Shown here in pieces: positions 275 to 60,386 of a DNA stretch of 64,000 nucleotides. The notes under the pieces were generated by a model. The model worked only from the letters and a program-made list of their open reading frames with translations. It did not search any database and was not told where the DNA came from. Position 1 is the first letter of the stretch. Every line of letters begins with the position of its first letter. The stretch comes from Hexactinellida sp. DTS-2022 (taxonomy: Eukaryota; Porifera; Hexactinellida), in assembly GCA_028753945.1 (NCBI GenBank), contig JAPNXP010000001.1:15056501-15120500 (forward strand), written 5' to 3'. The position numbers and the translations under genes are program-made.

Positions 275-2035
275 TCAGATGCTTCTGTAAAATAGAATAT
301 AAGCTTCTTGAAGTTTGACTTGTTCCCAGCTGACAATATAAGCCCAATTATCATTAAAATATCTCCAATCGTCCTTATACTTGCAATAAGCAGTGTAATG
401 ACCTCCATTCATGCTACCTGAATGGCTTACTATCCCATAGAGAGAGTATATGTGATCATTTTCGTTGTCTTTCAGTATCCATGTGTCATTAAACTTCACA
501 GGTGTTGAAAGCTTTGTAGATTTTGGATAGAAGGAGAATCTCTTGAGGTGAATAACAAGAAATTTAGGGAATTTGGTTATAGCTAGTTGTTTAGTTGATG
601 TTGTTAGGTTCTTACAATTGTTGCAGTAGGGACGATCTTCTCCAGTTAGAGTATCCATTGTAGTAATTACAGTTAAACAGTCATTTAGGCTGATATCAAT
701 AGAATAAAGGTGATATGGACGTTGTTTCCTTTCAGGAATAGGCAGTGCTAGATCCAAAAATGGAATGTATGCAGTAGATGTGTGTCTACAGACAGAGCAG
801 CATACCTCACTCCGTAGCATTCCACTGAACAGCTGAGATATCCTGCTGTCCTCCCAGGTCAGGTACCTAGCACAGGCTTCTCCCAGAGTCTCGCTATCAG
901 CTGGAGACTTGCGTCCCTCCTCGCTAGCTCTGTTGATCTCCTCGTGCAACTCGTTCAGGAGAAATCTCATGAACTCATGGGCGTCATGTTGACTGGACTT
1001 TGGGAACTTTGAAGTAATTGAATCTATCTGTTTCTTAAGTATATACGGATCTACTGAAAATTCCGAAGTTGTATCCCACAGTACTAACATAACATGTTTA
1101 AATACAGATGAGAGATCTCCTTTTCTGTTATTAAGGTACTGTTTGTACTCATCTGATACATATAATTGTCTGAGAGGAAGCGTGTGACTGAGACACTGTA
1201 TGACACTATTCATATAACATGTGTTTCCAAGGTTCCTCAAACCACGAGTAGGAATACCTTCTGGTATAAGGCAGATATATTGTCGGGGATCGTCTTTAGA
1301 TTCATGGCTAGCTTTACTAGTTGTACATGTTTTTTTATCTGTGTATTTGCTTGGAGTAATTGGAGCAATAGGAGAAAGTTTTATTCTCAAAATAGTTTTT
1401 TTTTCTGAACTGGTGTCAGAAGATTGTACGGTTGTAGATGCCTTTATAGAACTACTAATTGGGGTTGTAAGATATATTTGATTACCCATAGATGTTGAAT
1501 AAATAGACGCATTCTCAGTATCTGTTTGGTTTCCACCATTTTTCAGTAAATTAGAATGTGTTGTTTGGGAAGTATCCATTCTACTTCCCTTCGTAGTTAG
1601 AGGGAGAGAGTGGGTTTCATTGCATTTTAAGAGGCGAATATCATTATTCGCAGTTAGTAATTGTTGAGTTTTAGCTTTTCTGGCCGCCTGATCTCGTGTT
1701 TTAGTTGTCTTATTATCAGCAAAAATTGCAAAAATTTCTTTTACATTGTAATCCGATACCACTAGAATAGAGTATGCCCTACTCAGTATTTCTCCTAAAT
1801 TTTTATCCCACCTCAACTCTACTCGTCTGGTCCTATCTCTAGATGTCTCGAGACTAGTCCTTGAATTAATCTCTCCCCTGTAGACATCCTCTATTTGCTG
1901 CAGCTCTGACAGCAGTGCTCTCTCTCTCTCTCGCAGCACCTGATGAGCTCTGGCTACTCTCTCCCGTAGCTCTACTCGCACCCTCTCTATTTGTGTCAGG
2001 AATGGATTCTCTGCTGGCACATTAGCACTAGTCAT
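275..2035 (-). CDS. Coiled-coil plus USP deubiquitinase (USP2/8/21-like), copy 1
   Basis: Ubiquitin-specific cysteine protease that should cleave ubiquitin from proteins. The 586-residue protein begins with a basic-acidic coiled coil (about 10-85) of the kind seen after B-boxes in TRIM proteins. A Ser/Thr/Lys/Asn-rich linker (about 105-250) follows, then a USP domain (about 263-586). Visible catalytic features are the Cys box NLGNTCYMN (Cys273), the QHDAHEF box, the His box GGHYTAYC (His546) and FND with Asn561 as likely third residue. Two CxxC pairs (CSVC, CNNC) form the usual zinc site. It is intronless and starts at the ATG ending at 2035. It is the first of three tandem same-strand paralogues. 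Relative to copy 3, part of the coiled coil is missing and a long linker is present. Substrate is unknown; activity looks intact. Confidence 0.93.
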   Translation of the reverse strand: MTSANVPAENPFLTQIERVRVELRERVARAHQVLRERERALLSELQQIEDVYRGEINSRTSLETSRDRTRRVELRWDKNLGEILSRAYSILVVSDYNVKEIFAIFADNKTTKTRDQAARKAKTQQLLTANNDIRLLKCNETHSLPLTTKGSRMDTSQTTHSNLLKNGGNQTDTENASIYSTSMGNQIYLTTPISSSIKASTTVQSSDTSSEKKTILRIKLSPIAPITPSKYTDKKTCTTSKASHESKDDPRQYICLIPEGIPTRGLRNLGNTCYMNSVIQCLSHTLPLRQLYVSDEYKQYLNNRKGDLSSVFKHVMLVLWDTTSEFSVDPYILKKQIDSITSKFPKSSQHDAHEFMRFLLNELHEEINRASEEGRKSPADSETLGEACARYLTWEDSRISQLFSGMLRSEVCCSVCRHTSTAYIPFLDLALPIPERKQRPYHLYSIDISLNDCLTVITTMDTLTGEDRPYCNNCKNLTTSTKQLAITKFPKFLVIHLKRFSFYPKSTKLSTPVKFNDTWILKDNENDHIYSLYGIVSHSGSMNGGHYTAYCKYKDDWRYFNDNWAYIVSWEQVKLQEAYILFYRSI

Positions 2036-2401
2036 CTTGTGTAACTTTCTATAATAATGTAAATCAGGGCGAAGTTCAATTGTGTTTCGACACTACTGCT
2101 ACACAAGCAAAAGAGAAGGAATATAATAACAATCCGGGGTTGGCCGCATCTAATTTAGAGATTTAACCTGTTCTTTCATTGATTAATACAGTAAAATAAG
2201 CTTAGATAATATCAGAAATTAAGACAAGTTCATCTTGAAAATTACTTCTAGTGAGCAAGATACCATCATAATGTTTGAAGACCTAATGGTGTACGTATAG
2301 TACATGCAGTGAATCCAGTGATTAGTGTTGATATATCTAGAATAGTTAGAGTAATTTATAGTGCATACAACAATCTACATAAAATACCTATCATCACAGC
2401 T
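2036..2401. other. Intergenic, USP copy 1 upstream region
   Basis: About 370 bases upstream of the first USP gene. No TATA-like box is evident near its start. No gene is seen. Confidence 0.4.
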
Positions 2402-5111: not shown

Positions 5112-6740
5112 CTATCCCTCTTCGTAGAACAGAATATACGCTTCTTGCTTTCTTACATGTTTCCAACTGACTACATTCATCATACTGTCATTAAAACACC
5201 TCCATACCCCGTTGTACTTACAATAAGCAATGTAGTGACCTCCGTACAAGGAGCCTGAGTGACATGCAATCCCGTAGAGAGAGTACGTGTGAGTCTTGTT
5301 AGAGCTATCCTTCAGTTTCCATGTGTCATCAAACCTCACAGGCGTAGAGAGCTTAGTGCGGGTGGGGTAGTAGGAGAATCTCTTGAGCTGAATAACAAGG
5401 AATCTCGGTAGGTTGCATATTATCAGCTGTTTGGTGGATGTCGTTAAGTCCCTACATGTGTTGCAGTAGGGACGCTCTTCCTCCATTAGAGTCTCTTGTG
5501 TAGTGATCATCTTCAAGCAGTCAGTTAGATGGACAGGTTGCTTATAAAAAGAACTGTTTGGGTCATTCCTGTCAGGAATAGGTAGAGATAAGTCCATGAA
5601 TGGAATGTATGCTGTGGACTGGCTATAGCAGAGAGAGCAGCATACGTCACTCCGTAGCATTCCGCTGAACAGCTGAGATATCCTGCTGTCCTCCCAGGTC
5701 AGGTACCTAGCACAGGCTTCTCCCAGAGTCTCGCTATCAGCTGGAGACTTGCGTCCCTCCTCACTAGCTCTGTTGATCTCCTCGTGCAACTCGTTCAGGA
5801 GAAATCTCATGAACTCATGGGCGTCATGTTGGTTGTAATCTGAGAATATAGGAGCTGCTATTCCCACTTGTCTCTTCAGATAATGAGGGGATACTGGGTC
5901 AGAGGATGTTGTATTCCACAATTCTAGCATAAGCAGTTTGAAAGCATAAGAGAGATCTTTTCTGTCGTTAAGGTGCTGTGTGTATTCTTCTGATACATAT
6001 AGTTGTCTGAGAGGAAGCGTGTGACTGAGACACTGTATGACACTATTCATGTAACATGTGTTTCCAAGGTTCCTCAAACCAAGAGTAGGAATACCTTCTG
6101 GTATAAGCCTGGTATATTGCATTGGATAGTTTTGGGACTTATGGCTACCTTTATTAGATGTGTCAGGACATATTTGTTCATTTGGACATTCGTTAGGATT
6201 AATTGGAGTACTAGGGTCAACGGGTTTGGTATCAGAAAAACTTACGGTTGTAGATGTAGACTCTATAGGGTTTCTTGGATTGTCCTTGGAGGTTGAATTA
6301 GTAGGCGAATTATTATAATCTCTTTCTTGTTCATTATTTTTGATTATGTAAGAATCTGTTTGAATTTTACAAAGAGGGAGAGAGTGGTTGTCATTGTATT
6401 TTGAGAGGGTGTCATTATTCGCAGTTAACAACGGTTTAGTTTGAGCTTTACTAGCAGCCTGGCATGGTGTTCTAGCGTGTTTTTTTTCGAAATATGCAGA
6501 AATTTCTTTTACTTTGCATTCCCATACTATTCGAATCGACTTTGCCGTACTCACTATTCCCACAAAGTTTCCACTCGAATCCAACTTTATACCTTCCCTA
6601 TAGGCATCCTCTATACGCTGAATCTCTGACAGCAGTGCTGTCTCTCTCTCTTGCAGCTCCTGATGAGCTCTGGCTACTATACCTTTTACACAATTTCGAA
6701 CATTTTCTATCTCTTTCGGGTATGAATTTACTAATGACAT
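5112..6740 (-). CDS. Coiled-coil plus USP deubiquitinase, copy 2
   Basis: A 542-residue paralogue of its two neighbours, predicted to hydrolyse ubiquitin conjugates. The short N-terminal coiled coil (about 8-50) is shorter than in copy 3. It is followed by a Ser/Asn/Pro-rich linker (about 85-215) and a USP domain with Cys229 in NLGNTCYMN, a QHDAHEF box, a zinc site (CSLC and CNTC), the His box GGHYIAYC and CFNDS supplying the Asn. It is intronless and starts at the ATG ending at 6740. DNA at about 5640-5832 is almost identical to the equivalent part of copies 1 and 3 although flanking parts have diverged, which suggests gene conversion. It looks functional; substrate unknown. Confidence 0.93.
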   Translation of the reverse strand: MSLVNSYPKEIENVRNCVKGIVARAHQELQERETALLSEIQRIEDAYREGIKLDSSGNFVGIVSTAKSIRIVWECKVKEISAYFEKKHARTPCQAASKAQTKPLLTANNDTLSKYNDNHSLPLCKIQTDSYIIKNNEQERDYNNSPTNSTSKDNPRNPIESTSTTVSFSDTKPVDPSTPINPNECPNEQICPDTSNKGSHKSQNYPMQYTRLIPEGIPTLGLRNLGNTCYMNSVIQCLSHTLPLRQLYVSEEYTQHLNDRKDLSYAFKLLMLELWNTTSSDPVSPHYLKRQVGIAAPIFSDYNQHDAHEFMRFLLNELHEEINRASEEGRKSPADSETLGEACARYLTWEDSRISQLFSGMLRSDVCCSLCYSQSTAYIPFMDLSLPIPDRNDPNSSFYKQPVHLTDCLKMITTQETLMEEERPYCNTCRDLTTSTKQLIICNLPRFLVIQLKRFSYYPTRTKLSTPVRFDDTWKLKDSSNKTHTYSLYGIACHSGSLYGGHYIAYCKYNGVWRCFNDSMMNVVSWKHVRKQEAYILFYEEG

Positions 6741-7689
6741 TGTCCTAAGATATAAACAAAATCTAATTTAAAATTTTCGTCCGATGGTAAAAATTAAATA
6801 AATTCAAATGTATACAATAAAAGAGGAAACAAGTCATGGCGTTTTTATCATATTAAGCTGCTCATTCAGATTCATATCAGAATTAGAACCCAAATGGAAA
6901 ATTAATAATTGCGTAGTTTTGTGAATGTATTTTAAGTTAATGAACTGATATTCCCTTAATTAACTAAGGCGTGTGACGACCTGAAACTAAATCAAGGTGC
7001 GGCAGAAATTTGCCTGACATTAAAGCTGGTGACGGACAGACAAAGGACCTAAACTGTCGTTATGTACTGGTGATCGCATGATCGCTATAGAGCCAGCATG
7101 TTTTCTTATGAAGGCGAGCAAGCTACTTCAATGGCAATGTATGTTCCGCACGCTCCAAATTAACCTGGAGACACTTTGTCATGTCGTGTCACTATTACGA
7201 TGTAATGATCCCGGCTGTTGGGGTACCTTGATGCTTCATAATCTACCACAGAAGAATGGTCCAAGTTCTCTTTCGTTCTATATTGCAAACGCTGCCAGCT
7301 CGCTACACATTGGAGAATCTCCACAAGAGGCAGTGAATAACAGTCACACCAGAGGCGGCGCGAGGGTGGGGCCTGTGCCCACCAGTGGCGGCTGGCTAGC
7401 GCGCCACTGCCTCACACTAAAGGTTACCGTGAGACCGAAGTAAATTATCGTGCTCCTCTAACCGTGCACTCTACCTCCATGAGTTTGCGGGACTTTTATT
7501 GGCACGCGCTCTCATGGATCTACGTATAGTTCTGGACGAAACTTAAATAAGCGTTCGCTAGGTGTTTCATCAAGTAAGTTTCTCAAGAGTCTATGACACT
7601 AGCAACAGCTCAAGTTGAGCTCGCGAAACATCTTTGGAGTCAAACATCCCGATGCTTTCTATTGCGATATCAGTTTCGACGCCACTCGG
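6741..7689. other. Intergenic with degenerate GC-richer segment
   Basis: 6741-7020 is ordinary AT-rich DNA upstream of USP copy 2. About 7020-7560 is richer in GC than its surroundings and has open but unrecognisable reading frames with a C/G-rich block near 7350-7420. It directly precedes the Mutator-like remnant and may be part of that transposon, but I cannot show it. Confidence 0.4.
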
Positions 7690-10871: not shown

Positions 10872-12305
10872 TTAGGATACATCTTCTTCTTTGTAGAATA
10901 GAATATACGCTTCTTGGGTTTTTACAAATTCCCAGCTAACTACACTAGCCATAGAATCATCCAAACATTTCCAATCGTCCCTATACTTACAATAAGCAGT
11001 GTAATGACCAGAGTATAAAGTACCTGAATGGCTTACTATCCCATAGAGAGAGTATGTGTGGTTCCTATAATCACCATCAACTAGAGTCCAGGTGTCACCG
11101 AACTCCACAGTTGTTGATAGCTTTCTACGGAACTGGTCGCCAGAGAATCTCTTAAGATGAATATTGAGGAACCCTGGTAGTTTGGTTATATTGAGCCGTT
11201 TGGTGGATGTCGTTACCTTCATACATGTGTTGCAGTAGGGACGCTCTTCTTCCATTAGAATCTCTTCTGCTGTGAAGAGCTCCAAACAATCAGCTAAACG
11301 GATATGTTGCTTATAATATGAACAGTTTGGGTCATTCGTATCAGGAATAGGCAGAGATAAGTCCATGAATGGAATGTATGCTGTGGACTGGCTAGAGCAG
11401 AGAGAGCAGCATACCTCACTCCGTAGCATTCCACTGAACAGCTGAGATATCCTGCTGTCCTCCCAGGTCAGGTACCTAGCACAGGCTTCTCCCAGAGTCT
11501 CGCTATCAGCTGGAGACTTGCGTCCCTCCTCACTAGCTCTGTTGATCTCCTCGTGCAACTCGTTCAGGAGAAATCTCATGAACTCATGGGCGTCATGTTG
11601 GCTGGAATCTGAGAACTTTGGAGTAATTGAATCTATCTGTTTCTTCAGTATATTCGGATCTACTGAAAATACCGAAGTTGTATCCCACAAGTCAACCATA
11701 ACACGTTTAAATAGAAATGAGAGATCTCCTTTCCTTTTATTAAAGTACTGTGTGTATTCGTCTGATACATAGAGATGTCTGAGAGGAATAGTGTGGCTGA
11801 GACACTGTATGACACTATTCATGTAACATGTGTTTCCAAGGTTCCACAAACCACGAGTAGGAATACCTTCTGTAACATGTTCTCTTGTTTTCTCCTTGTA
11901 GTCCGCTACTGCTCTCACTCGAATCGATCCTGTCCCACTCAGTGTTCCTTCTAGGTTTGCATCCCACTCCAGCTCCACTCGTCTCATCCTGTCTCTAGCT
12001 GTCTCCAGACTAGCTTCTAGCTCTCTCATGCGGGCATCCAGTAGAGACACACTCTGTTCGAGGAATTCTTGATTCTCAACCTTAAGTAGAGTTGCTATTG
12101 TATGCTCTTTCAAACGGGACAACTCTAGAATCCGTTCAGCTACTCCCTCTCCCCTGTAGCCATCCTCTAGCTGCTGCAGCTCTGACAGCAGTGCTGTCTC
12201 TCTCTCTTTCAGCACATGATGAGCTCTGGCTACTCTCCTTTTTAGTTCTACTCGCACCCTCTCTATCTGTAAGAGGAGTGATTCCTCTACTAACACATTA
12301 GCCAT
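10872..12305 (-). CDS. Coiled-coil plus USP deubiquitinase, copy 3
   Basis: A 477-residue member of the tandem USP family with the fullest coiled coil (about 12-118, rich in Leu/Glu/Arg) and no low-complexity linker: the USP domain follows almost at once (about 146-477). The Cys box reads GLWNLGNTCYMN (Cys160), with Trp replacing the Arg found in copies 1 and 2. A QHDAHEF box, CSLC and CNTC zinc ligands and the His box SGHYTAYC are present. The last catalytic motif is CLDDS, an Asp where the others have FND/Asn; both residues are tolerated in USPs. Intronless. It is divergent from the beta-helix membrane gene at 13127. Probably an active deubiquitinase that oligomerises through the coil. Confidence 0.93.
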   Translation of the reverse strand: MANVLVEESLLLQIERVRVELKRRVARAHHVLKERETALLSELQQLEDGYRGEGVAERILELSRLKEHTIATLLKVENQEFLEQSVSLLDARMRELEASLETARDRMRRVELEWDANLEGTLSGTGSIRVRAVADYKEKTREHVTEGIPTRGLWNLGNTCYMNSVIQCLSHTIPLRHLYVSDEYTQYFNKRKGDLSFLFKRVMVDLWDTTSVFSVDPNILKKQIDSITPKFSDSSQHDAHEFMRFLLNELHEEINRASEEGRKSPADSETLGEACARYLTWEDSRISQLFSGMLRSEVCCSLCSSQSTAYIPFMDLSLPIPDTNDPNCSYYKQHIRLADCLELFTAEEILMEEERPYCNTCMKVTTSTKRLNITKLPGFLNIHLKRFSGDQFRRKLSTTVEFGDTWTLVDGDYRNHTYSLYGIVSHSGTLYSGHYTAYCKYRDDWKCLDDSMASVVSWEFVKTQEAYILFYKEEDVS

Positions 12306-13126
12306 TTCTGAACTTTTCTATATTAAGTATAATCAACAGCCAATGTTGCTCAATAAATATTTAGATTCACACTACTGAATAAGACAGCTTTGTCAAGTAG
12401 CCTAAGTACAGTTAACTCGGTTAACTCTGAAATCAGAATTTGCTTATTCTAATTGCATCTTAATGATCATAAATTATATATTTAATTAGGTAATTATATA
12501 GTTTATGAGTTTAACACTTCCATAAAATTGTAAATTCAAATATGATCTTATTTATTTTAGTTAACATATCGTTTTATGCCAACATCCACGTTGAAGCATC
12601 AACAAATAATAACATATTGTCCTTCTAGAAGCTTGAATGTATTAATAAAATACAAATTATTGTTGTAATACCTTTGGCCGTTTGGTGTACCTGTTGTGGC
12701 TATAGGTAATTGGATGCAAATTATTATACATGTTCTGAATAAAAGATTTAGTTTTATTCTTTCATTAAATAATTACGTATTTACACAGATCTGTTAACTG
12801 GTCAATAAATTTGTAACTGCTAACCGACATTAAGCGGTTAGTAGATCAAAACCCGTTAACGAACCCAGCCTTGCAATTATTTTTGATAAAGTATTTGTTA
12901 AATTACTCAAGAGACACTAAATAACTATTAATGAATAGATATACGTATAATTATAGTCACTCAATCTATTTTACTAATGGTATACTCCTAAATTAGATAC
13001 ATTACTTGTGATCAATCAAGTAACCCGAGACGATATGAAATTATTAGATAGAGACAGTACATTGGAAATAAATAGGAGCTAGGAGTTGAATTCAAAAATC
13101 ATAGAGCCAGAGGATTGTCTATTGCT
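12306..13126. promoter_or_regulatory. Divergent intergenic region
   Basis: About 820 bp between the starts of USP copy 3 (minus) and the beta-helix membrane gene (plus); it must hold both promoters. It is AT-rich and I see no convincing TATA box or repeated motif. Confidence 0.4.
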
Positions 13127-16100
13127 ATGACTAAGCGTGTCCCTTTTCTAATACTATGCTGTGTTGTGTTTGGACCAGCATTGGCTGCATCCGTTAAGAA
13201 CTGGTATTATATCAACATATTTATTACCAACTATGATAAACTCTATGATCCATGCTTTTGCATGGCATTCACGAATGTACCAAACGAATTCGACTGTGTA
13301 CCTCCACAGTTCATCCAGAGAATGTGTCGTGGACAGAGTCTGAAGGAAATATTTGCCATCCTACCCGAAGCTCTGAACCAGAGTGCAACTGAGGATACGA
13401 TTGTACAAGATTTAAAGATAACATTGGATAAGGGGGAATTCACAGAGACAGTAGTTTTCGACCAAAAAGATGTTCCACCACATTTTCAATTCGAGAAAGT
13501 TGTTGTGACTCATCGCACGTATAAAGAAAAAAATGCTGACATATGTCCAAGCAAAGGTAACGGTGAAACTTACGGAGTGCTTTCCTTCAAGGACTGGACT
13601 TTCGAAACCTCTATAGAATATCGTAGGTACGTAGGATGCAAGAATAATATGGAGAGCATTATTACTATCCGCAATAGCTCAGACATTCGTATCTACGGAA
13701 TTGATTTCTATGACAATGAACAGTCTCCGATTTTAATCATTGACAGTAATGTTCTTATATCTAACTGCACTATACAAAACACTCGACAATACTATAATCA
13801 TACACTCAAGGAAAACGGCATTCAGGAGTTGGGAAATCATGAAATAGCATTCAGTTTAGGCATCTCTATAATGATGACAAGCAATAGTGCTAAGAGCCAT
13901 CACGTAGAAATTAGAAATGTAACCTTCAAAGACAACAGATGCATGAAGAGTAACAGGACTGAACAAATCTGCGTTCATAATGTCGATTTAAATGCCATCC
14001 CAACATCCTTTTTCGGCGGTGCTGTGGGTGCAGCGTTTACAAGCACATCCGGTTCCATATTGATAATTAACAGTGTGTTTATCAACAACACAGCCTGTGA
14101 CAGCGGTGGCGGATTATTCATACACGTGTGTGATGGGATGACTAGTGGGAGTGTGCTAATGTCGAATTGTATACTAAGGGGCAATACGGCTGGGTATCTA
14201 GGAGGAGGCATATACCTTATGCAGGAGATAGAGGCTCATAACTTCTATCTGGAAATGTATGGAAGTGTTGTAGAGGAGAACCAAGGCTGCATCGCGGGGG
14301 GAGGCATAGCTGTACTGGTTGCAGATAAATCGCACAAATTCGATTTAATCAACCATCTAACGAATTTTACTACAGAAATGATATCCTTCTCATACTTTCT
14401 TAACACGAAATTTATTCGCAACTACTCAGGTAGGATTAGCTCTGGACACGCTGCCTACCTTAAAGCATACGATTCTCCGGCTAAGAAACAGCATCCGGTT
14501 ATTGTATTCGGGAACTGCGACTTCTCTTACAACCACAAACTCAACAGTACTCCTAACGGACTCACATTCGGTTCTATTCTAGCTGAGAACTTCATAATTG
14601 CATTTACTGGAGTTAACAACATCTCCAATAGCGAAGCTGGAGGGCTACTGTTGATCCAGGCAATAACAATAATATATGGGAATGTTAGTTTTAGTAATTT
14701 AAGCGCATATTCTGGTGGGGCAATCCATGCAAGGAAATGGTCAAAGATTCTGCTCACAAAGGACGCTCATGTTGTGTTCAGTAACAACTCGGCGAGCATA
14801 GCAGGAGGCGCTATATTCCACTACTTCGGCAACTGGGATGGCTATTCAGCCTCTAGCCTATACAATTCCTATTGTTTACTGGGGTACTTCCCTTCTATTC
14901 GCGAACCACCACAAAATTGGGAGAGCCACTTAACATTCATTAACAACGATGCGACCGCGGGAGGGGGAGCAGTATTCATAACTGATCTGAGACAATGTGC
15001 GTTGTTTAACGGCAAACTACAGCTGGATAAAGCATTCAACTACACAGACAAGTTTGTGTATATCAACAATACAGTGTCTCAGGGAAAATTTAAATACCTT
15101 GGAGCTTCGTACGGTACTATTGCAAGCTCAGTCGAGAAACTTGTATCAATACATGAGAGTGATTCGTACGAGAAGGGCCCTGGCATACGCGTACCGATAA
15201 ATTATGTACCGATTGACCAGTTAGGTCAAGTAACAATCGCCGTTATAGAGTTCAAATCTTCCATATCAACAGTTAAACTTTTTGATGATTACTTTGTCAT
15301 AACACCAACGGACTACAACGCATATATCAAATGCAAAGCCATGAATGAGAGTGACTGTCTTCTAAACAGTATATCCTTTCTTCAATACCGTGTCGATGGG
15401 TTTATTCCAGAGAGCATAACATTCCAGTATAAGATCAAAAGCGGGATTGAGTCAGTGAATACAAACAACGAATACAACCAACAAAACCCACTAACGATAA
15501 ACAACCCGTACTGTGACGTAGGCTATATACTAAGCTCGGGCGGCATATGTACCTGTGATTACGACAAACAGATAAACGGAGTAATCAAGTGCTCGTCTAC
15601 AGGAAATGTGTACATCCAGCCAGGCTACTGGGGAATCAAGAGGCAGGGAATAAACAGTAAGTTTACACTAAGCAGTGTTATTGTTAAGTGTGCTCACAGC
15701 ACGTGTTCATGCAATTATAGTGAACCCTCTCATCACGGACCCAACTGTTTGATACCAAAGGACCCGAATGATCTCTGTGTGGAAGAGCTCAACAGAGAAG
15801 GTGATCTGTGTGGGAATTGCAAGGAAAACTACACCTTTTTACCCTTCGCAGTTGAATGTGTATCAGCACCTAATGAAAACTACCATATTCTAATGGCAAC
15901 CTATGTGTTCATGACATTTGTATGCGCGTGTCTGATCCTAATTTTCCGGTGCAAGTTTTGGAATGGATTCCGTATATTCATCATAGTGTTGTACTCCCTG
16001 ACCTACATCAACTACAGCTTTAACCTCATACACCACATAATACTACTGAGAATAATACAAATACTACAGGGATTCACTGTACTTAACTTCTACATAATAT

Positions 16101-17152
16101 ACCCAGCCTACAAAGAGATTGGATTCACTACAACAGAAATCCTTGCGCTATACCCTGTTGCCACAATACTAATCGTGCTTGCAATCTTTGCAGTATTAAG
16201 CGCAATATCGTACAAATTTCCTGCTTCTTCATTTCATCATAAGTTCAAAGTAAGACGGCTTATATCTCCGGCTATCTACCTGTGGTATATAATGAGTATA
16301 TCGCTATTCCGAGTCTTCCTAGACTTCTCATACTGCTTAGCAATCATGAATAACGCAACTGAAGATGGGAATTTAGAGTTTAGGAACAGGTACAGTGGAA
16401 CCACTGAGTGCTATACACTGACCAATGGATATGTCTATTACTTGGCAGGAGTATTTTTCCTTGCTATCGGCCTTATAATGCCAGTGCCGGTGCTGTTGAT
16501 TATAGGCTCTATGAAGTGGAGCATTAACCGATCCTACACACTCAACAAGCTAATCATACCATTCAAACCCTGGGGGCGTTTCCAATGGGGCTGGGAGTAT
16601 ATTAGGTTTCTGCTGTTGGCTATCGGTCTCGTGACACATGATACAGCACCCTTGTATGGAAACTCGGTTATATCTATGTTCATAGTATTCCTGATGATAA
16701 TCCACATAACTATATGGCCGTACAAGGAGAAGAGTGCTAACGTAATTGAGTGCATAGGATGGGTTCTGCTGTCTCTCCTGTTTATAATCGACAACGCGGT
16801 TACACTGGACTATAGCTATATGGACTTATTCCAGCAGGTTCTTGTTTCCCTAATCATAATCCTACTTTGTTGCGCATTTATAACCTACACTATTCTAAAA
16901 ATAGCCTCAAAGCTAGCTAAAGAAAACTCCCATGTGAAGATTAAGAAACTATTCCCCCATAGACTGCCCATTATAGGCAATCTAGCTTCCAAACTATACA
17001 AACAGCTGAGGAAGAGGGTTGACGATGAAAGCTACGATGAGAAATGGGTAGCGGAAAAACCCAAACCAAAGCAGAAGGTCTCTGAGTCTCTCCATCGAAG
17101 AGATAGCATTCTAACTAACCTCAGCCTTGCTGTAAATACCAGTAGCATATAG
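13127..17152 (+). CDS. Secreted beta-helix plus polytopic membrane protein
   Basis: A single-exon gene for 1341 residues, starting at the ATG at 13127 (an upstream TTG is not a credible start). Residues 1-21 form a signal peptide. The region of about 185-615 carries repeats of G-G-A/G plus N-rich turns typical of right-handed parallel beta-helices (for example AGGAIF, ATAGGGAVF), with many N-glycosylation motifs. A cysteine-rich module (about 795-912) includes CTC, CSC and LCGNCKENY. From about 918 to 1264 there are eight or more hydrophobic spans, followed by a basic cytoplasmic tail. This architecture (beta-helix, Cys-rich hinge, multi-span domain) is known from large uncharacterised families in early-branching animals and protists. 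Role unknown; a surface receptor or adhesion role is inference. Confidence 0.9.
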   Translation: MTKRVPFLILCCVVFGPALAASVKNWYYINIFITNYDKLYDPCFCMAFTNVPNEFDCVPPQFIQRMCRGQSLKEIFAILPEALNQSATEDTIVQDLKITLDKGEFTETVVFDQKDVPPHFQFEKVVVTHRTYKEKNADICPSKGNGETYGVLSFKDWTFETSIEYRRYVGCKNNMESIITIRNSSDIRIYGIDFYDNEQSPILIIDSNVLISNCTIQNTRQYYNHTLKENGIQELGNHEIAFSLGISIMMTSNSAKSHHVEIRNVTFKDNRCMKSNRTEQICVHNVDLNAIPTSFFGGAVGAAFTSTSGSILIINSVFINNTACDSGGGLFIHVCDGMTSGSVLMSNCILRGNTAGYLGGGIYLMQEIEAHNFYLEMYGSVVEENQGCIAGGGIAVLVADKSHKFDLINHLTNFTTEMISFSYFLNTKFIRNYSGRISSGHAAYLKAYDSPAKKQHPVIVFGNCDFSYNHKLNSTPNGLTFGSILAENFIIAFTGVNNISNSEAGGLLLIQAITIIYGNVSFSNLSAYSGGAIHARKWSKILLTKDAHVVFSNNSASIAGGAIFHYFGNWDGYSASSLYNSYCLLGYFPSIREPPQNWESHLTFINNDATAGGGAVFITDLRQCALFNGKLQLDKAFNYTDKFVYINNTVSQGKFKYLGASYGTIASSVEKLVSIHESDSYEKGPGIRVPINYVPIDQLGQVTIAVIEFKSSISTVKLFDDYFVITPTDYNAYIKCKAMNESDCLLNSISFLQYRVDGFIPESITFQYKIKSGIESVNTNNEYNQQNPLTINNPYCDVGYILSSGGICTCDYDKQINGVIKCSSTGNVYIQPGYWGIKRQGINSKFTLSSVIVKCAHSTCSCNYSEPSHHGPNCLIPKDPNDLCVEELNREGDLCGNCKENYTFLPFAVECVSAPNENYHILMATYVFMTFVCACLILIFRCKFWNGFRIFIIVLYSLTYINYSFNLIHHIILLRIIQILQGFTVLNFYIIYPAYKEIGFTTTEILALYPVATILIVLAIFAVLSAISYKFPASSFHHKFKVRRLISPAIYLWYIMSISLFRVFLDFSYCLAIMNNATEDGNLEFRNRYSGTTECYTLTNGYVYYLAGVFFLAIGLIMPVPVLLIIGSMKWSINRSYTLNKLIIPFKPWGRFQWGWEYIRFLLLAIGLVTHDTAPLYGNSVISMFIVFLMIIHITIWPYKEKSANVIECIGWVLLSLLFIIDNAVTLDYSYMDLFQQVLVSLIIILLCCAFITYTILKIASKLAKENSHVKIKKLFPHRLPIIGNLASKLYKQLRKRVDDESYDEKWVAEKPKPKQKVSESLHRRDSILTNLSLAVNTSSI

Positions 17153-20940: not shown

Positions 20941-21453
20941 TCAATACTTCTTCCCTTTAAGGATCTCAGATTTCCATACGACCGGGTGTGTCTCCTCGGT
21001 AGCGCTATCATCTTGTTTGTACACTTTTATAGTTTTATCCGCCTCTCCCACCAACAGCCTACTGCCGCTCTTATCGAATGCCATACAGAACAAGCCAGCC
21101 TCGGAGTCGAGAGACCCCGGCTGGACAATGGTCTGAGCTTTCTGGAAATTATACCCAGACCGCCAGTCCCAGAAGAACATGCTCCCGTTATCCCCACCCG
21201 TCACAAGGACACCGTCCGGGTTAACTGCCATGCAGTTTATAATGCCGGTCTGTCCGTTCATGTTCTGCATGAAGTTACCGTCTGGGAATCTCCACTGCTT
21301 TATGACGTCAGGCGAGGCTGATACAAATGTGAACTCCTCGGGATGTAGCGCGAGGGAGCGCACGCTCTTCTTGTGGTTGGTTAGGATCGCATGCGTCTTG
21401 CCAGCAGTTAGGTCCCAGAGACGAACGGTAGCGTCATGAGACCCAGTTATTAT
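20941..21453 (-). CDS. PLRG1: PLRG1 exon 4 (last)
   Basis: 170 codons plus TGA from acceptor tttag|ATAATA. Encodes the rest of repeat 4 through repeat 7 ([50 protein letters not shown]) and the conserved C-terminus. Confidence 0.95.
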
Positions 21454-30400: not shown

Positions 30401-33400
30401 GACACAGAATATAGAGTAGAATCTCGTTATCACAAAAACCGAAGGAACGAAAAATGTGTAATCCTTAGCGGCGTCATTTGTATATAAGAGGCCTTGAATA
30501 GTGAACATTAAATTGTTGTGTTGCCAATTGTTTGCTATTCAGTTTAGCTTAGGTTTTGTTATAGTGACTTGAATAGTTTGAATAGTGACTGAAATATTGA
30601 ACATATTACAGTGGATGCCGGTTATAAGAACATGGTCGGGAACTGCATATAATGTTGTTATAACCGACATAAATTATATAGGGTATATGGCAACCGTTTT
30701 CCAGTAGAATGTTCATATAACCGGCATAAAGTATATAGGGTATATGGCAACCGTTTTCCAGTAGAATGTTCATATAACCGGCATCTACTATAACTGGAAA
30801 TAGTATTAACCGAGTCGGTATAATGTCTTACCTGAGGGTTGGGAGCCTGCGATTCCACACAGGCCACTGTGTTGGTGTGTCCGGACAGAGTGAATATGCA
30901 AGCCTTGGTTCTGATGTCCCACACCCTGGCAGTGCTGTCTCTGCCGCAGGAGATCAGCACGTCCAGACGAGGGTGCAGAGTCAGACCGTACACTGCACTC
31001 AGGTGACCGTGGTAGTGTCGTATCACCTATTATACAGTAATACACTTCTATTCGTATATTATAGTATAGTTAGTTATGTCCGAATTTCAATCCATAATCC
31101 ATAATACAGTAGAACTTCGTTAGTAGGAACACGGTTAATTTAATATGAAATTCCGGTTAATACGAACAAACAGTTCCACAAAATCAGATCCCTATAATGG
31201 CTGATTAATGGGTATTACTCCGGTTGATACGAACTTTGGGTTAAACGAAGAAATTTGACTGTCCGTTGCTGTTCGAATTAACGAGGTTCTAGTTCTACAG
31301 TAATATGAACACCAGGGGAGCGCCAAAATCCGTTCGCCTTATCCGGAATTTGTATTAACCAATACCATTTGTATTGAAAAGGCTTTGAAGGGGACTGTAA
31401 TAGTGTTCGTATTAACCGGAATTTCGTATTAACCGTGTTAGTACTAAGTTCTACTGTATATGGATTACAAAAGCGATAATCTGGTCTGTACACACATAAT
31501 GATGCATAATAATCATATTTAACAAGTTTTTCTATTTGCAGGTATATTCTGTATAATGAATACAGTGGAACCTCGTTAGTACGAACACGGTTAATACGAA
31601 CACAATTTCAGTCCCTTCAAAGCCTTTTCAATACAAATTACATTGCTTAATACGAATTCGGCATAAAGCGAACACATTTTTACGGTCCCTTGGTGTTCCT
31701 ACTAACGAAGTTCTACTGTAGTATGACAATGGATAATAAAATAGTGAGATTCTACTTACAGTGCATTACCTTGTTGTGTTCCAGGTCCCAGCACTTGATC
31801 TGCTTGTCCTCCCCAGCCGAGTAGAAGTATGTGTGTCTGTGCGATACCTTCACAGCCCGTACGGTGGAGATGTGTCCGGTGAGAGAGAGCCTCAGGGTGC
31901 TGGTCGCGAGGTCCCATATCTTTATGGTCCGGTCGGTGCTGCCTGTCACGAACCAGTCGTTGCTGGGATCTACGTCTATGCAGCGGACCCAGCCCAGGTG
32001 TCCGCTGATGACTCGGTACAACTTCCAAGGGGCGTGCCAGCTAGGCTAGGAGATACAGTTAACCGACTTATGTAAAACTAACGGTAAATAATCCAATAAA
32101 GAGAGGGCATTAGAATATACCATACGTATTCCTCGAATAAGCGACGGTTCAATAAATGGTACAGTCGACTCCGCTTAATAGAACCATCGGTTAATAGATT
32201 TCTCCGCTTAATCGGGTCAAAGCAACCTGGTCCTGATCCCGAGGTGACTCTATTAGCGGAGTTGACTGTATTTGTATGCGAACCATGGCTGAAAGAACAT
32301 GGTTTAGAGATTGAACAAAATGTACATAGGTATTGTACTAGTATACTAAGCAAATATGTTAGTAATCGGATTTCTAACAATTATCCATGGTTTCAAATTA
32401 CCTCACAAAAAGTGGAGAAAAGTGGAGTGCAACGTCGATTTTCAGAACTCTTAGGGACCAGTGAAACATGTTCGGATAATTCAAGGCTGAACTAATTTAT
32501 ATAACATTGGACTAGCCAAGTTTGTTCAGATAATCGAGGTTGCAACTTGCAATGAAGTATATCGCCTCCTCGGTGACCAAGGATATATCTCCTATACCGT
32601 AACATTAATGTGTGAATTAGGCGTATGAAAATTGGATCAGACCAGGATTAGGAACGTACAGTGGAGTTGCTTTATTAGCATACTTGCCAACCGTCCCGCT
32701 TTTGGGCAAAGATTTTTTAGCGAGACGTCTCGTTTTATGCAATTGGAGCAAGGTTCCTTCCGTTGAGATAATCAAATTATTACAATTACTGGGACTATTT
32801 TGAACTCTAATTATAGAATATATGGTATATTAATTATTATTAACTAGTAATAGTAATACTACTTCACTTATTTATGTACTAATGTTCTTTGTCCCGCCAA
32901 ACTTCCTTATGTCCCGCCAAAATTCATTCCTCCGTCCCGCCAAAGACTTGCTATAGGTTGACAAGTATGTATTAGTAACTCGGGTTTGCCACTAAATCTG
33001 GTTGCTAACATGCGAAGTTGCTAATAGGGGATGAAATTAATAGTGTTATCAGCTTGGGACCCGAAAAGCGTTTGCGCTTACGAGAGTTGCTAATAAAGCA
33101 ATTCCCGTATATTACAACTGGCTGTATAATACACTGTCGGTGACATACACCCGTGTATAAATAGGCGGTATCATTACATACTATCCCTACCTTCTCAGTA
33201 GTTATAGCCTTGAGTGCGAGACTAGACTTGAGAGTGTTGCTGTCTCTAGTTGGCACCAGCGCTGTGCTCCCCCTTACCATATCCCGGTTACCGATATCCT
33301 CGAATGGAATATCAGTACCACCCTCAGATAGCTTATGTGGTCCCGACGCGACTGAATCTGCCCTGGAGGCGATACGACCGATCGTGTCATTGGGAGGCGG

Positions 33401-44173: not shown

Positions 44174-44488
44174 CTATGTGTAATTGTATCTCTCTAACTC
44201 ATCCAGCATCTGAATCAGTTCATAATTCATTTTAGCTTCCCTGAGTTCGCTCACTTCATCCAATATATACTCCAACTCTCTCTGTAATTGTTCCTTCTCC
44301 TCTTCTAGGGCTTTTTCGTACTGTTTCTTCTTATCGCGCTGTGCTTTGTTATATTGACTCATCTTCCTGAGTCTCCGAGTGTACTTCATTGCTTTGGCAT
44401 CTTCAGGACTTATGTTATTCGATTTGATGAATTGATTTAGCTTTTTAACCTCTACATCTGCGATTAAATTATATATTGTGGTATCCAT
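44174..44488 (-). CDS. bZIP-like protein with altered basic region, copy 1
   Basis: A 104-residue protein, start chosen to match the divergent paralogue of identical length (an upstream in-frame start would add 29 unrelated residues). A basic stretch (about 36-56) leads into a zipper with Leu61, Leu68, Ile75, Leu82 and Tyr89 spaced by seven. Arg51 sits exactly ten residues before the first Leu, as in bZIP factors, but the residue eight before it, normally the invariant Asn, is Met43, and the usual two Ala are Tyr-Asn. A conserved leader (KSNNISPEDAKA) precedes it. Likely a nuclear dimerising protein; DNA recognition may be altered or lost. Confidence 0.75.
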   Translation of the reverse strand: MDTTIYNLIADVEVKKLNQFIKSNNISPEDAKAMKYTRRLRKMSQYNKAQRDKKKQYEKALEEEKEQLQRELEYILDEVSELREAKMNYELIQMLDELERYNYT

Positions 44489-45117
44489 CTTGTTCGAATG
44501 GTATTTCTTTATTAAATATTTAAATTTCTGTCTATATTTATACTTTTGTAACCCAATATTTGCTGATGCAAACACAACTGCATTATTCTACCAACATACA
44601 GTATCCCATCAATATACTATTACCATTAATGCAGTCTACTATATCTAGCTGGTGGAAGTGACAGATTTATTGCTATCTTTCAGTCTGTTGGATATCAGAC
44701 TAAGTGAAAGTAATTGATTTGTTCGATTAGTGGATGAAACTGAGTACTGAAATACTTGAATGAGTTACTAACAGGACACTCACCTCTTAACTGGAAATTG
44801 ACTTCAATTAGTGGGAAATGTCAAGTTTGATCAGAGAGTACAATTTATGCTTCTCAATCACTTTCACTCATTCTGATATTCAACTAAAGATTTCATTCTA
44901 GATAACAGAAATGATTCAGCAAGTATAAATTTAACAGACACAATAGTACTACACTATATTAGTGAGTCTAGTGATGATGCTAAAGGTGATAACGAATGTT
45001 GTAGTTTGTAATTACCACTAGAGTGTCTATGTTCGCTTACAGTGATCCCCAAGTATAAATATGGACAGAGGTTGATTTTTCAAGAAGTAAGAGTTCGGAA
45101 ACATAGTTCTAATCAAC
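44489..45117. promoter_or_regulatory. Shared divergent promoter of the bZIP-like pair
   Basis: 629 bp between the two start codons. Both sides have the same core box agtataaata: minus strand at about 44532-44545 (45-57 bases before the ATG) and plus strand at 45053-45061 (about 57-65 before). The arrangement suggests common regulation. Confidence 0.6.
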
Positions 45118-45432
45118 ATGGACTCTTCACAATACAAAAAAGTCGCCGATGCAGGAATAAAAAAGGTAAATCAATACATCAAATCAAACAATATTAGCCC
45201 CGAAGATGCCAAAGCAATTAAATACAATCGACGACTCAGGAAGATGAGTCAGTATAACAAAGCGCAGCGCGATAAGAAGAAACAGTACGAAAAGGATCTG
45301 GAGGAGGAGAAGGAACAACTTCAGAGAGAGTTGGAGGACATCCAAGATGAAGTGAACGTGCTCAAGGAAACAAAAGCCCATTATGAGCTACTTCAAATGC
45401 TGGATGAGTTAGAGAAAAAGAATTACGTATAA
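45118..45432 (+). CDS. bZIP-like protein with altered basic region, copy 2
   Basis: 104 residues, head-to-head with a paralogue that is alike over the whole length. Basic region RRLRKMSQYNKAQRDKKK (38-55) has Arg51 in the bZIP register and Met43 where Asn is expected. Heptads Leu61, Leu68, Ile75, Leu82 and Tyr89 follow, with charged e/g positions (EEEKEQLQREL). The basic region and first heptads are the best-conserved part between copies, so selection acts there despite the missing Asn. A TATA box is at 45054-45061 and AATAAA near 45603. Probably a homo- or heterodimer with copy 1; function unknown. Confidence 0.78.
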   Translation: MDSSQYKKVADAGIKKVNQYIKSNNISPEDAKAIKYNRRLRKMSQYNKAQRDKKKQYEKDLEEEKEQLQRELEDIQDEVNVLKETKAHYELLQMLDELEKKNYV

Positions 45433-59599: not shown

Positions 59600-60386
59600 G
59601 CTGCGAGTACTAAACGAAACTCACCGTAGTTACGACCCTCTTCAGTATTTTCTCCTCGCCCCCCATGGCACTGACGGTTGGCATATGGGGATCCCATCTG
59701 TTCGTCATGGCCGGTACAGGCAAGCTGTGAGCGCGTTGGAATTCTACCGATTCCGCATTTAGAAGCGAGACGAGTTCAATCCTCTCCTGTATGGCGGACG
59801 GCTGTTCCAGCAGTACCTCACTGACATGTGGGCAAAGATTGAGTCCTCGCGAATCGAATGGCACTCCAGCAACCAGGATAAGCTTCGTGCGGACCTGTAT
59901 CGTGGCTTGGTGGATGCAGTATCTGCGGGGGGGACAAGGCAGGAAGGCGTGTCATTCTCCCTTCTTCGTTCACTGGCGGACCTCGCCACATGATGGGCCT
60001 GTATTAAGACGCGATGGAAATTGTTCGTAGGTTCGGGAAGCCCCATCTGTTCGTGACCTTCACATGTAATCCGATGTGGCCGGTAATCCAGAAAGCGCTG
60101 GAGCCGGCACAAATGGCTGTGGATCGTGGCGACATCGTCTCCAGGTTGTTCGAACTCAAGAAGAATGCTCTAATGGATGACATTCGTAACGCGCCTTCGG
60201 GCCTCCGGCAAAACGATTGGTCGCATGTACAAGGTGCATCCGAGCGAAGGAGAGCGCTTCTACTTTCGTATACTTCTTACGCACGTGTGTGGCGCCAAGA
60301 GTTTCATCGAGCTTCGGACTGTTGATGGTCATGCCCCATGTGAGACCTTCAAGGAAGCCTGTCATCTGCGCGGGCTGCTTGATGAT

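What the first reader, a model, noticed from the sequence alone, without database searches (positions are those of the whole stretch)
44174..45432. Twin bZIP-like genes in which Met replaces the invariant basic-region Asn
Arg51 and the zipper positions 61, 68, 75, 82 and 89 hold exact bZIP register in both proteins, yet residue 43, the normally invariant DNA-contacting Asn, is Met, and the Ala-Ala pair is Tyr-Asn. The altered basic region is the most conserved part between the copies. The pair is divergent, equal in length and shares TATA boxes. This may be a new bZIP class with different DNA specificity or dominant-negative dimerisers.
Basis: partly seen in the sequence, partly recalled or inferred. 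Interest (0 to 1): 0.78.

Follow-up and report, generated by a model that had tools for sequence, protein, structure and literature searches.

The report
Glass-sponge Maf genes lacking invariant Asn
Two neighbouring genes in what is very probably a glass-sponge genome make short Maf-type gene switches whose key DNA-touching amino acid has been replaced; they belong to a large, conserved family in which that normally fixed position has changed many times.

Summary
In detail: both 104-aa ORFs have Met43 at the bZIP Asn position, Tyr46-Asn47, Arg51 and an in-register zipper. The framing changes. The proteins are Maf-type (Pfam bZIP_Maf over cut-off), so the Tyr is the ordinary Maf Tyr64; Asn61→Met is the oddity. 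They are no isolated pair: I gathered 84 bZIP domains from this 112-Mb genome, and Asn is replaced in 48 of 83 scored. The three species-named homologues of 50 are all from the glass sponge Oopsacas minuta. Homologues in other assemblies keep the residue of their nearest own-genome gene in 50 of 50. The twins show dN/dS 0.16; the basic region is more conserved than the zipper in 13 of 13 genes compared; 43 of 48 non-Asn genes have an upstream TATA box. I infer small-Maf-like regulators that still bind DNA, with altered specificity; no binding data exist. Oomycetes offer a precedent; a survey of 896 eukaryotic bZIPs names none in animals.

The parts
44174..44488 (-). Short Maf-type bZIP gene, 104 aa, Met at the Asn position (codon 44360-44362)
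45118..45432 (+). Short Maf-type bZIP gene, 104 aa, Met at the Asn position (codon 45244-45246)
45151..45225 (+). Extended-homology-region-like stretch (residues 12-36) of the plus gene, aligned with MafG/MafA/MafB
   Evidence: boundary by inference
45226..45288 (+). Basic region (residues 37-57) of the plus gene; Arg57, Tyr64 and Arg69 of MafG kept, Asn61 is Met
45298..45384 (+). Leucine zipper heptads (d positions L61, L68, I75, L82, Y89) of the plus gene
   Evidence: helix 28-103 predicted
44535..44542 (-). TATA box (TATAAATA) of the minus gene, starting 54 bp before its ATG
45054..45061 (+). TATA box (TATAAATA) of the plus gene, starting 64 bp before its ATG
44489..45117 (.). 629-bp divergent intergenic promoter region

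Best explanation
The twins are functional, small-Maf-like transcription regulators of a glass sponge. Shown: each is little more than an extended homology region, a basic region and a zipper; each keeps the residues equivalent to MafG Arg57, Tyr64 and Arg69; Asn61 is Met; the family is large, under purifying selection that is strongest in the basic region, and most members have a TATA box. Inferred: they dimerise through the zipper and still bind DNA. In MafG, Asn61 contacts a flanking C while Arg57 reads the next G, so swapping Asn61 would change base preference beside and within the core without destroying the phosphate contacts. With no room for an activation domain, they would act as small Mafs do: by repressing, or by lending DNA specificity to a larger partner. 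The many short TATA-driven paralogues suggest condition- or stage-specific regulators.
For: PF03131 over cut-off for both; MafG, MafA and MafB are the best solved structures, aligned through the extended homology region, at marginal E of 0.0011 to 0.011. Met in 9 of 9 M-class homologues. Twins dN/dS 0.16 overall and 0.05 in the basic region. In 13 of 13 non-Asn genes with outside homologues the basic region is more conserved than the zipper, in 12 of 13 more than the extended homology region (two of the 13 have identical domains). Net basic-region charge averages +7.1 in 48 non-Asn members, +6.5 in 35 Asn members, +8 in MafG. Residue 61 is the same in 50 of 50 homologues as in their best own-genome match. 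TATA box at -120 to -30 in 43 of 48 non-Asn genes, against 3 of 48 on the reverse strand and 4 of 47 downstream. Asn61 and Tyr64 contacts: PMC9756947, passages. A laboratory Asn-to-Ser mutant of another bZIP protein prefers a new sequence: PMC13228511, passages.
Against: No binding, expression or partner data for the twins. In an oomycete only 1 of 7 Cys-type and 1 of 5 Val-type non-Asn bZIPs gave a motif on protein-binding arrays, against 11 of 17 Asn types (PMC11267843, passages), so many such proteins may not bind alone. Basic-region dN/dS is less extreme in the twins' comparisons with L003 (0.32 and 0.19), and synonymous sites are saturated in many other pairs. No Maf, AP-1 or CRE site is enriched upstream of the family. 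Foldseek found no PDB match for the predicted monomer.
Confidence: 0.6

Rival explanations
1. Dominant-negative or titrating dimerisers: they pair with canonical Mafs or other bZIPs and take them off DNA, because without Asn61 they cannot bind specifically.
For: Asn is central in other bZIPs; non-Asn oomycete bZIPs mostly failed on arrays and the authors name this role as one possibility (PMC11267843, passages). The proteins are too short for an activation domain.
Against: The basic region is more conserved than the zipper in 13 of 13 comparisons and keeps its charge; pure titrators would be expected to relax there and keep the zipper. Position 61 matches between assemblies in 50 of 50.
Confidence: 0.2
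2. Ordinary Maf binding: Asn61 is dispensable once Tyr64 is present, so the proteins bind plain Maf elements and the residue drifts.
For: Asn is replaced in 48 of 55 members with Tyr, Phe or His at 64 and in 0 of 28 with Ala, Thr or Ser there. Arg57, Tyr64 and Arg69 are kept in the twins.
Against: Free drift does not fit 50 of 50 matching residues across assemblies. The 64-61 link is confounded by ancestry: only 3 supported independent pairs, 5 on the whole tree, which cannot reach significance.
Confidence: 0.15
3. Decaying pseudogenes or retrocopies with a degenerate basic region.
For: Short, single open frames; a few genome matches carry a stop inside the frame.
Against: Twins dN/dS 0.16, intact frames, TATA boxes, homologues in other assemblies.
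Confidence: 0.03

Closest known systems
Small Maf proteins (MafG, MafF, MafK)
   Same: Extended homology region, Maf Tyr64, Arg57 and Arg69, zipper; lack of an activation domain in small Mafs is recalled
   Different: Asn61 is Met; Ala65 is Asn; Cys68 is Gln; 104 aa; dozens of related genes in one genome
Canonical-looking Maf genes of the same genome (G000:C14:77675-84986, four genes)
   Same: Maf domain with Tyr64
   Different: Keep Asn61 (4 of 4) and have predicted proteins of 256-369 aa
Oomycete non-Asn bZIPs (C-R, V-R, R-R classes; Pibzp1)
   Same: A lineage-specific expansion in which the invariant Asn is replaced while the Arg is kept (PMC4046829, passages and section 6)
   Different: Other lineage; not described as Maf-type in the parts I saw; Cys, Arg or Val named rather than Met or Ser
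Animal bZIP repertoire of Jindrich and Degnan 2016
   Same: Maf is one of their animal families
   Different: They report a remarkably stable animal complement and, over 896 bZIPs of 49 genomes, three kinds of departure at the Asn or Arg, none named in animals (PMC4736632, passages and section 7)

Membership tests
Maf (bZIP_Maf, PF03131) | Profile score over the curated cut-off | tested here: met
   35.2 and 31.7 bits against 22
Maf (bZIP_Maf, PF03131) | Extended homology region before the basic region | tested here: met
   By alignment only: with MafG, MafA and MafB from residue 10-13 of the plus protein, E 0.0011-0.011. The model shows helices 3-23 and 28-103 but had no PDB match
Maf (bZIP_Maf, PF03131) | Tyr at MafG position 64 | tested here: met
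   Tyr46 in both
Maf (bZIP_Maf, PF03131) | Asn61 and Cys68 of MafG | tested here: not met
   Met43 and Gln50 in both
Maf (bZIP_Maf, PF03131) | Binds Maf recognition elements | not testable with these tools
   No binding data; no upstream enrichment of such sites
bZIP superfamily | Basic region with N-x7-R, and a Leu zipper starting ten residues after the Arg | tested here: not met
   Arg, spacing and zipper met (L61 = Arg51 + 10); no N-x7-R in either protein
Oomycete C-R class bZIP | Cys at the Asn position | tested here: not met
   Met in both; 2 of the 83 scored domains of this genome have Cys
Dominant-negative bZIP | Dimerises but does not bind DNA | not testable with these tools
   Basic-region conservation argues against it

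The most novel reading that the evidence does not exclude
In glass sponges the 'invariant' bZIP asparagine has become a specificity-setting position: the Maf tyrosine freed it, it has taken ten other residues in this one genome, and orthogroups then fixed their own residue, giving dozens of Maf-derived regulators with different DNA codes. It would be the first such repertoire described in animals.
Probability: 0.35. Interest if true: 0.82.

Novelty: new variant of a known kind. Interest (0 to 1): 0.63.

Why it matters
The Asn is treated as near-universal in bZIP proteins: a survey of 896 bZIPs names departures at it only in Giardia and oomycetes (PMC4736632, section 7). A conserved animal family in which it is Met, Ser, Ile, Arg or Leu, matching across assemblies within each orthogroup, would let one ask directly what that residue encodes and how a DNA-binding code diversifies. 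It also points to a regulator-rich family in a lineage reported to have lost other key transcription factors (Oopsacas, PMC10280926, passages).

Tried and rejected
Species by ribosomal RNA: the genome search gave no answer (with RF01960; with RF02543), so the glass-sponge label rests on protein homologues. Rfam and tRNA scans of the window were empty. Fold comparison: the model is confident locally (mean pLDDT 90.5, pTM 0.55), but Foldseek returned 0 PDB matches and VIA-align had nothing to compare; no conclusion drawn. Dimer preference from g-e' charges: both homodimers and the twin heterodimer score +2, no discrimination. Upstream motifs: TATA dominates; interferon-type GAAANNGAAA sites were weak (4 of 44 non-Asn and 5 of 29 Asn genes), and Maf, AP-1 and CRE sites were not enriched. 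Tree: 84 rows on 78 columns, 25 of 80 inner branches open, bootstrap not settled; used only for minimum change counts. The Tyr64-Asn61 link looks striking by Fisher test (p 6.6e-16), but that ignores ancestry. A viral or mobile origin was not searched formally; no ORF of 90 aa or more besides the twins lies between 33611 and 48376. Pseudogenes: disfavoured.

Caveats on counts: 6 of the 87 PF03131 places, and the place C1:14723297, were not fetched; the 84 domains also draw on the loci, identical ORFs were collapsed to one, and the set still holds a pair with identical domains (L080) and near-identical copies (L004, L005, L007). In the scripts two ORFs of locus L051 shared one name, so one was overwritten. 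One search printed 47 of 50 for the residue match; the other three (P0037, P0041, P0042) were mis-indexed by my script, and their printed motifs show Ser. In some searches the pattern misplaced P0049; the alignment gives Ser. The homologue searches were seeded with non-Asn proteins, so they say nothing on how common Asn is elsewhere. In one search the class printed as N also takes in the member with a gap. Searches used a minus-strand frame without its first Met.

Full report
Observation. The two ORFs are real and as described: 104 aa each, divergent, 629 bp apart, 78 of 104 residues identical. At the bZIP Asn position both have Met43; Arg51 follows eight residues later, and the first zipper Leu, L61, ten after that. 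Heptad positions read L, L, I, L, Y, so the register holds although two of five are not Leu. No N-x7-R exists in either protein; N-x7-K occurs at two or three places but out of register with the zipper.

What family. Both score over the Pfam cut-off for bZIP_Maf; bZIP_2 is below its cut-off in both, and bZIP_1 is listed only for the plus protein, at 7.3 bits. The best solved structures are MafG, MafA and MafB, at E 0.0011 to 0.011, and the alignments run through the extended homology region. In MafG numbering the twins keep Arg57, Tyr64 and Arg69, while Asn61 is Met, Ala65 is Asn and Cys68 is Gln.

Which organism. The window lies in an unnamed 112.4-Mb, 18-contig genome. Of the 50 homologues found in three searches, three carry a species name, and all three are the glass sponge Oopsacas minuta: P0017, 63% identical to its clear best own-genome match, P0032, 89% to the L010 gene, and P0050, 68% to the L045 gene. 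I infer a hexactinellid; ribosomal searches failed.

How many. The plus twin finds 17 places in the genome; the Maf profile finds 87, of which 70 are over the cut-off. I gathered 84 bZIP domains, 73 of them in predicted proteins of at most 190 aa. At the Asn position 35 have Asn, 48 have something else (M 16, S 12, V 4, I 3, L 3, A 3, R 2, C 2, K 2, Q 1) and one is a gap; the partner Arg is kept in 70 of 84. On a poorly resolved tree the Asn/non-Asn state changed at least 5 times and the residue identity at least 22 times. Four genes on contig C14 look like canonical Mafs with Asn and Tyr.

Is it functional. The twins have dN/dS 0.16, and 0.05 in the basic region; against L003 the basic-region values are 0.32 and 0.19, and many other pairs are saturated at synonymous sites. 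Other assemblies hold nine M-class relatives at 58-86% identity to the plus twin, and all nine keep Met. P0002 and P0003, among the nearest to the twins, report the same longest contig length, which suggests that the pair itself is conserved (inference). Over all three searches, 50 of 50 homologues have the same residue 61 as their best own-genome match (three read from the printed motif after a script indexing error). Across 13 own genes with outside homologues, mean identity is 0.90 in the basic region, 0.80 in the extended homology region and 0.68 in the zipper; basic exceeds zipper in 13 of 13. Basic-region charge is not lost. One S-class homologue, P0018, bears a Trinity transcript name, so that orthogroup appears to be transcribed. 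TATA boxes lie at -120 to -30 in 43 of 48 non-Asn genes and in 25 of the 35 other genes scanned, against 3 of 48 and 6 of 35 on the reverse strand and 4 of 47 and 1 of 35 downstream. No TATA rate for unrelated genes of this genome was measured.

Mechanism. In MafG, Asn61 bonds the C beside the core, with Tyr64 close by, and Arg57 reads the next G (PMC9756947, passages). Keeping Arg57, Tyr64 and Arg69 while replacing Asn61 should preserve docking and change local base preference. In a different bZIP protein a laboratory change of this Asn to Ser shifted preference to a new sequence (PMC13228511, passages). Against this, most oomycete non-Asn proteins gave no motif on arrays (PMC11267843, passages). 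I put altered-specificity binding at 0.6, titration at 0.2 and plain Maf binding at 0.15. The Asn is lost only where residue 64 is Tyr, Phe or His: 48 of 55, against 0 of 28 with a small residue. That fits the Maf Tyr having released the Asn, but ancestry explains much of it: 3 supported independent pairs, none going the other way, too few for a test.

Novelty. Replacement of the Asn with family expansion is known in oomycetes (PMC4046829, passages and section 6). For animals, a survey of 896 eukaryotic bZIPs, with three sponges but no glass sponge in its listed sampling, names no animal exception (PMC4736632, passages and section 7). Of the two glass-sponge genome papers, the passages I saw of one name a single upregulated bZIP of unknown function and say that a bZIP set was built on the Jindrich and Degnan data, so a bZIP tree may exist in a supplement that I could not open (PMC10282587); the other has no occurrence of bZIP or Maf (PMC10280926). 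Full-text searches (listings seen) showed no report of this family; subscription journals and supplements were not searched. I recall from memory, untested, that some other atypical animal bZIPs exist, such as fly sisterless-A. Verdict: a new variant of a known kind, with the twins as one pair among many members.

Noticed in passing
L010:1498-1791 (G000:C11:1700485-1700736, minus): A family member with Ile at the Asn position and His at the partner Arg, 82-98% identical in nine homologues from other assemblies including Oopsacas minuta LOD99_11860, and 71% in a tenth (P0039): both hallmark residues replaced yet highly conserved.
   Followed up: partly
window 275-2092, 5112-6767, 10872-12317 (minus): Three single-frame ORFs on one strand that look like ubiquitin-specific proteases sharing near-identical stretches (name from recall).
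   Followed up: no
window 20941-21453, 30658-31026, 31752-32045 (minus): Exons resembling the splicing WD40 protein PLRG1 (name from recall).
   Followed up: no
window 13076-17152 (plus): A 1358-aa single ORF, seemingly with an extracellular first half and a multi-membrane second half (by eye).
   Followed up: no
window 60008-60325 (plus): An ORF that resembles part of a Helitron-type transposon protein (by eye, from recall).
   Followed up: no
L080:538-885 and L080:5062-5409 (G000:C1:16.69 Mb): Two family copies with identical domains, inverted about 4.5 kb apart: recent duplication or gene conversion.
   Followed up: no
upstream regions of the family (44 non-Asn, 29 Asn genes): Weak enrichment of ACTGAAAG and GAAA-type words, possibly a shared regulatory element; inconclusive.
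   Followed up: partly
window 45226-45288 (plus) and the matching basic region of the minus gene: Synonymous divergence between the twins is lower in the basic region (dS 0.41) than before (1.18) or after it (1.75), so local gene conversion is possible.
   Followed up: no
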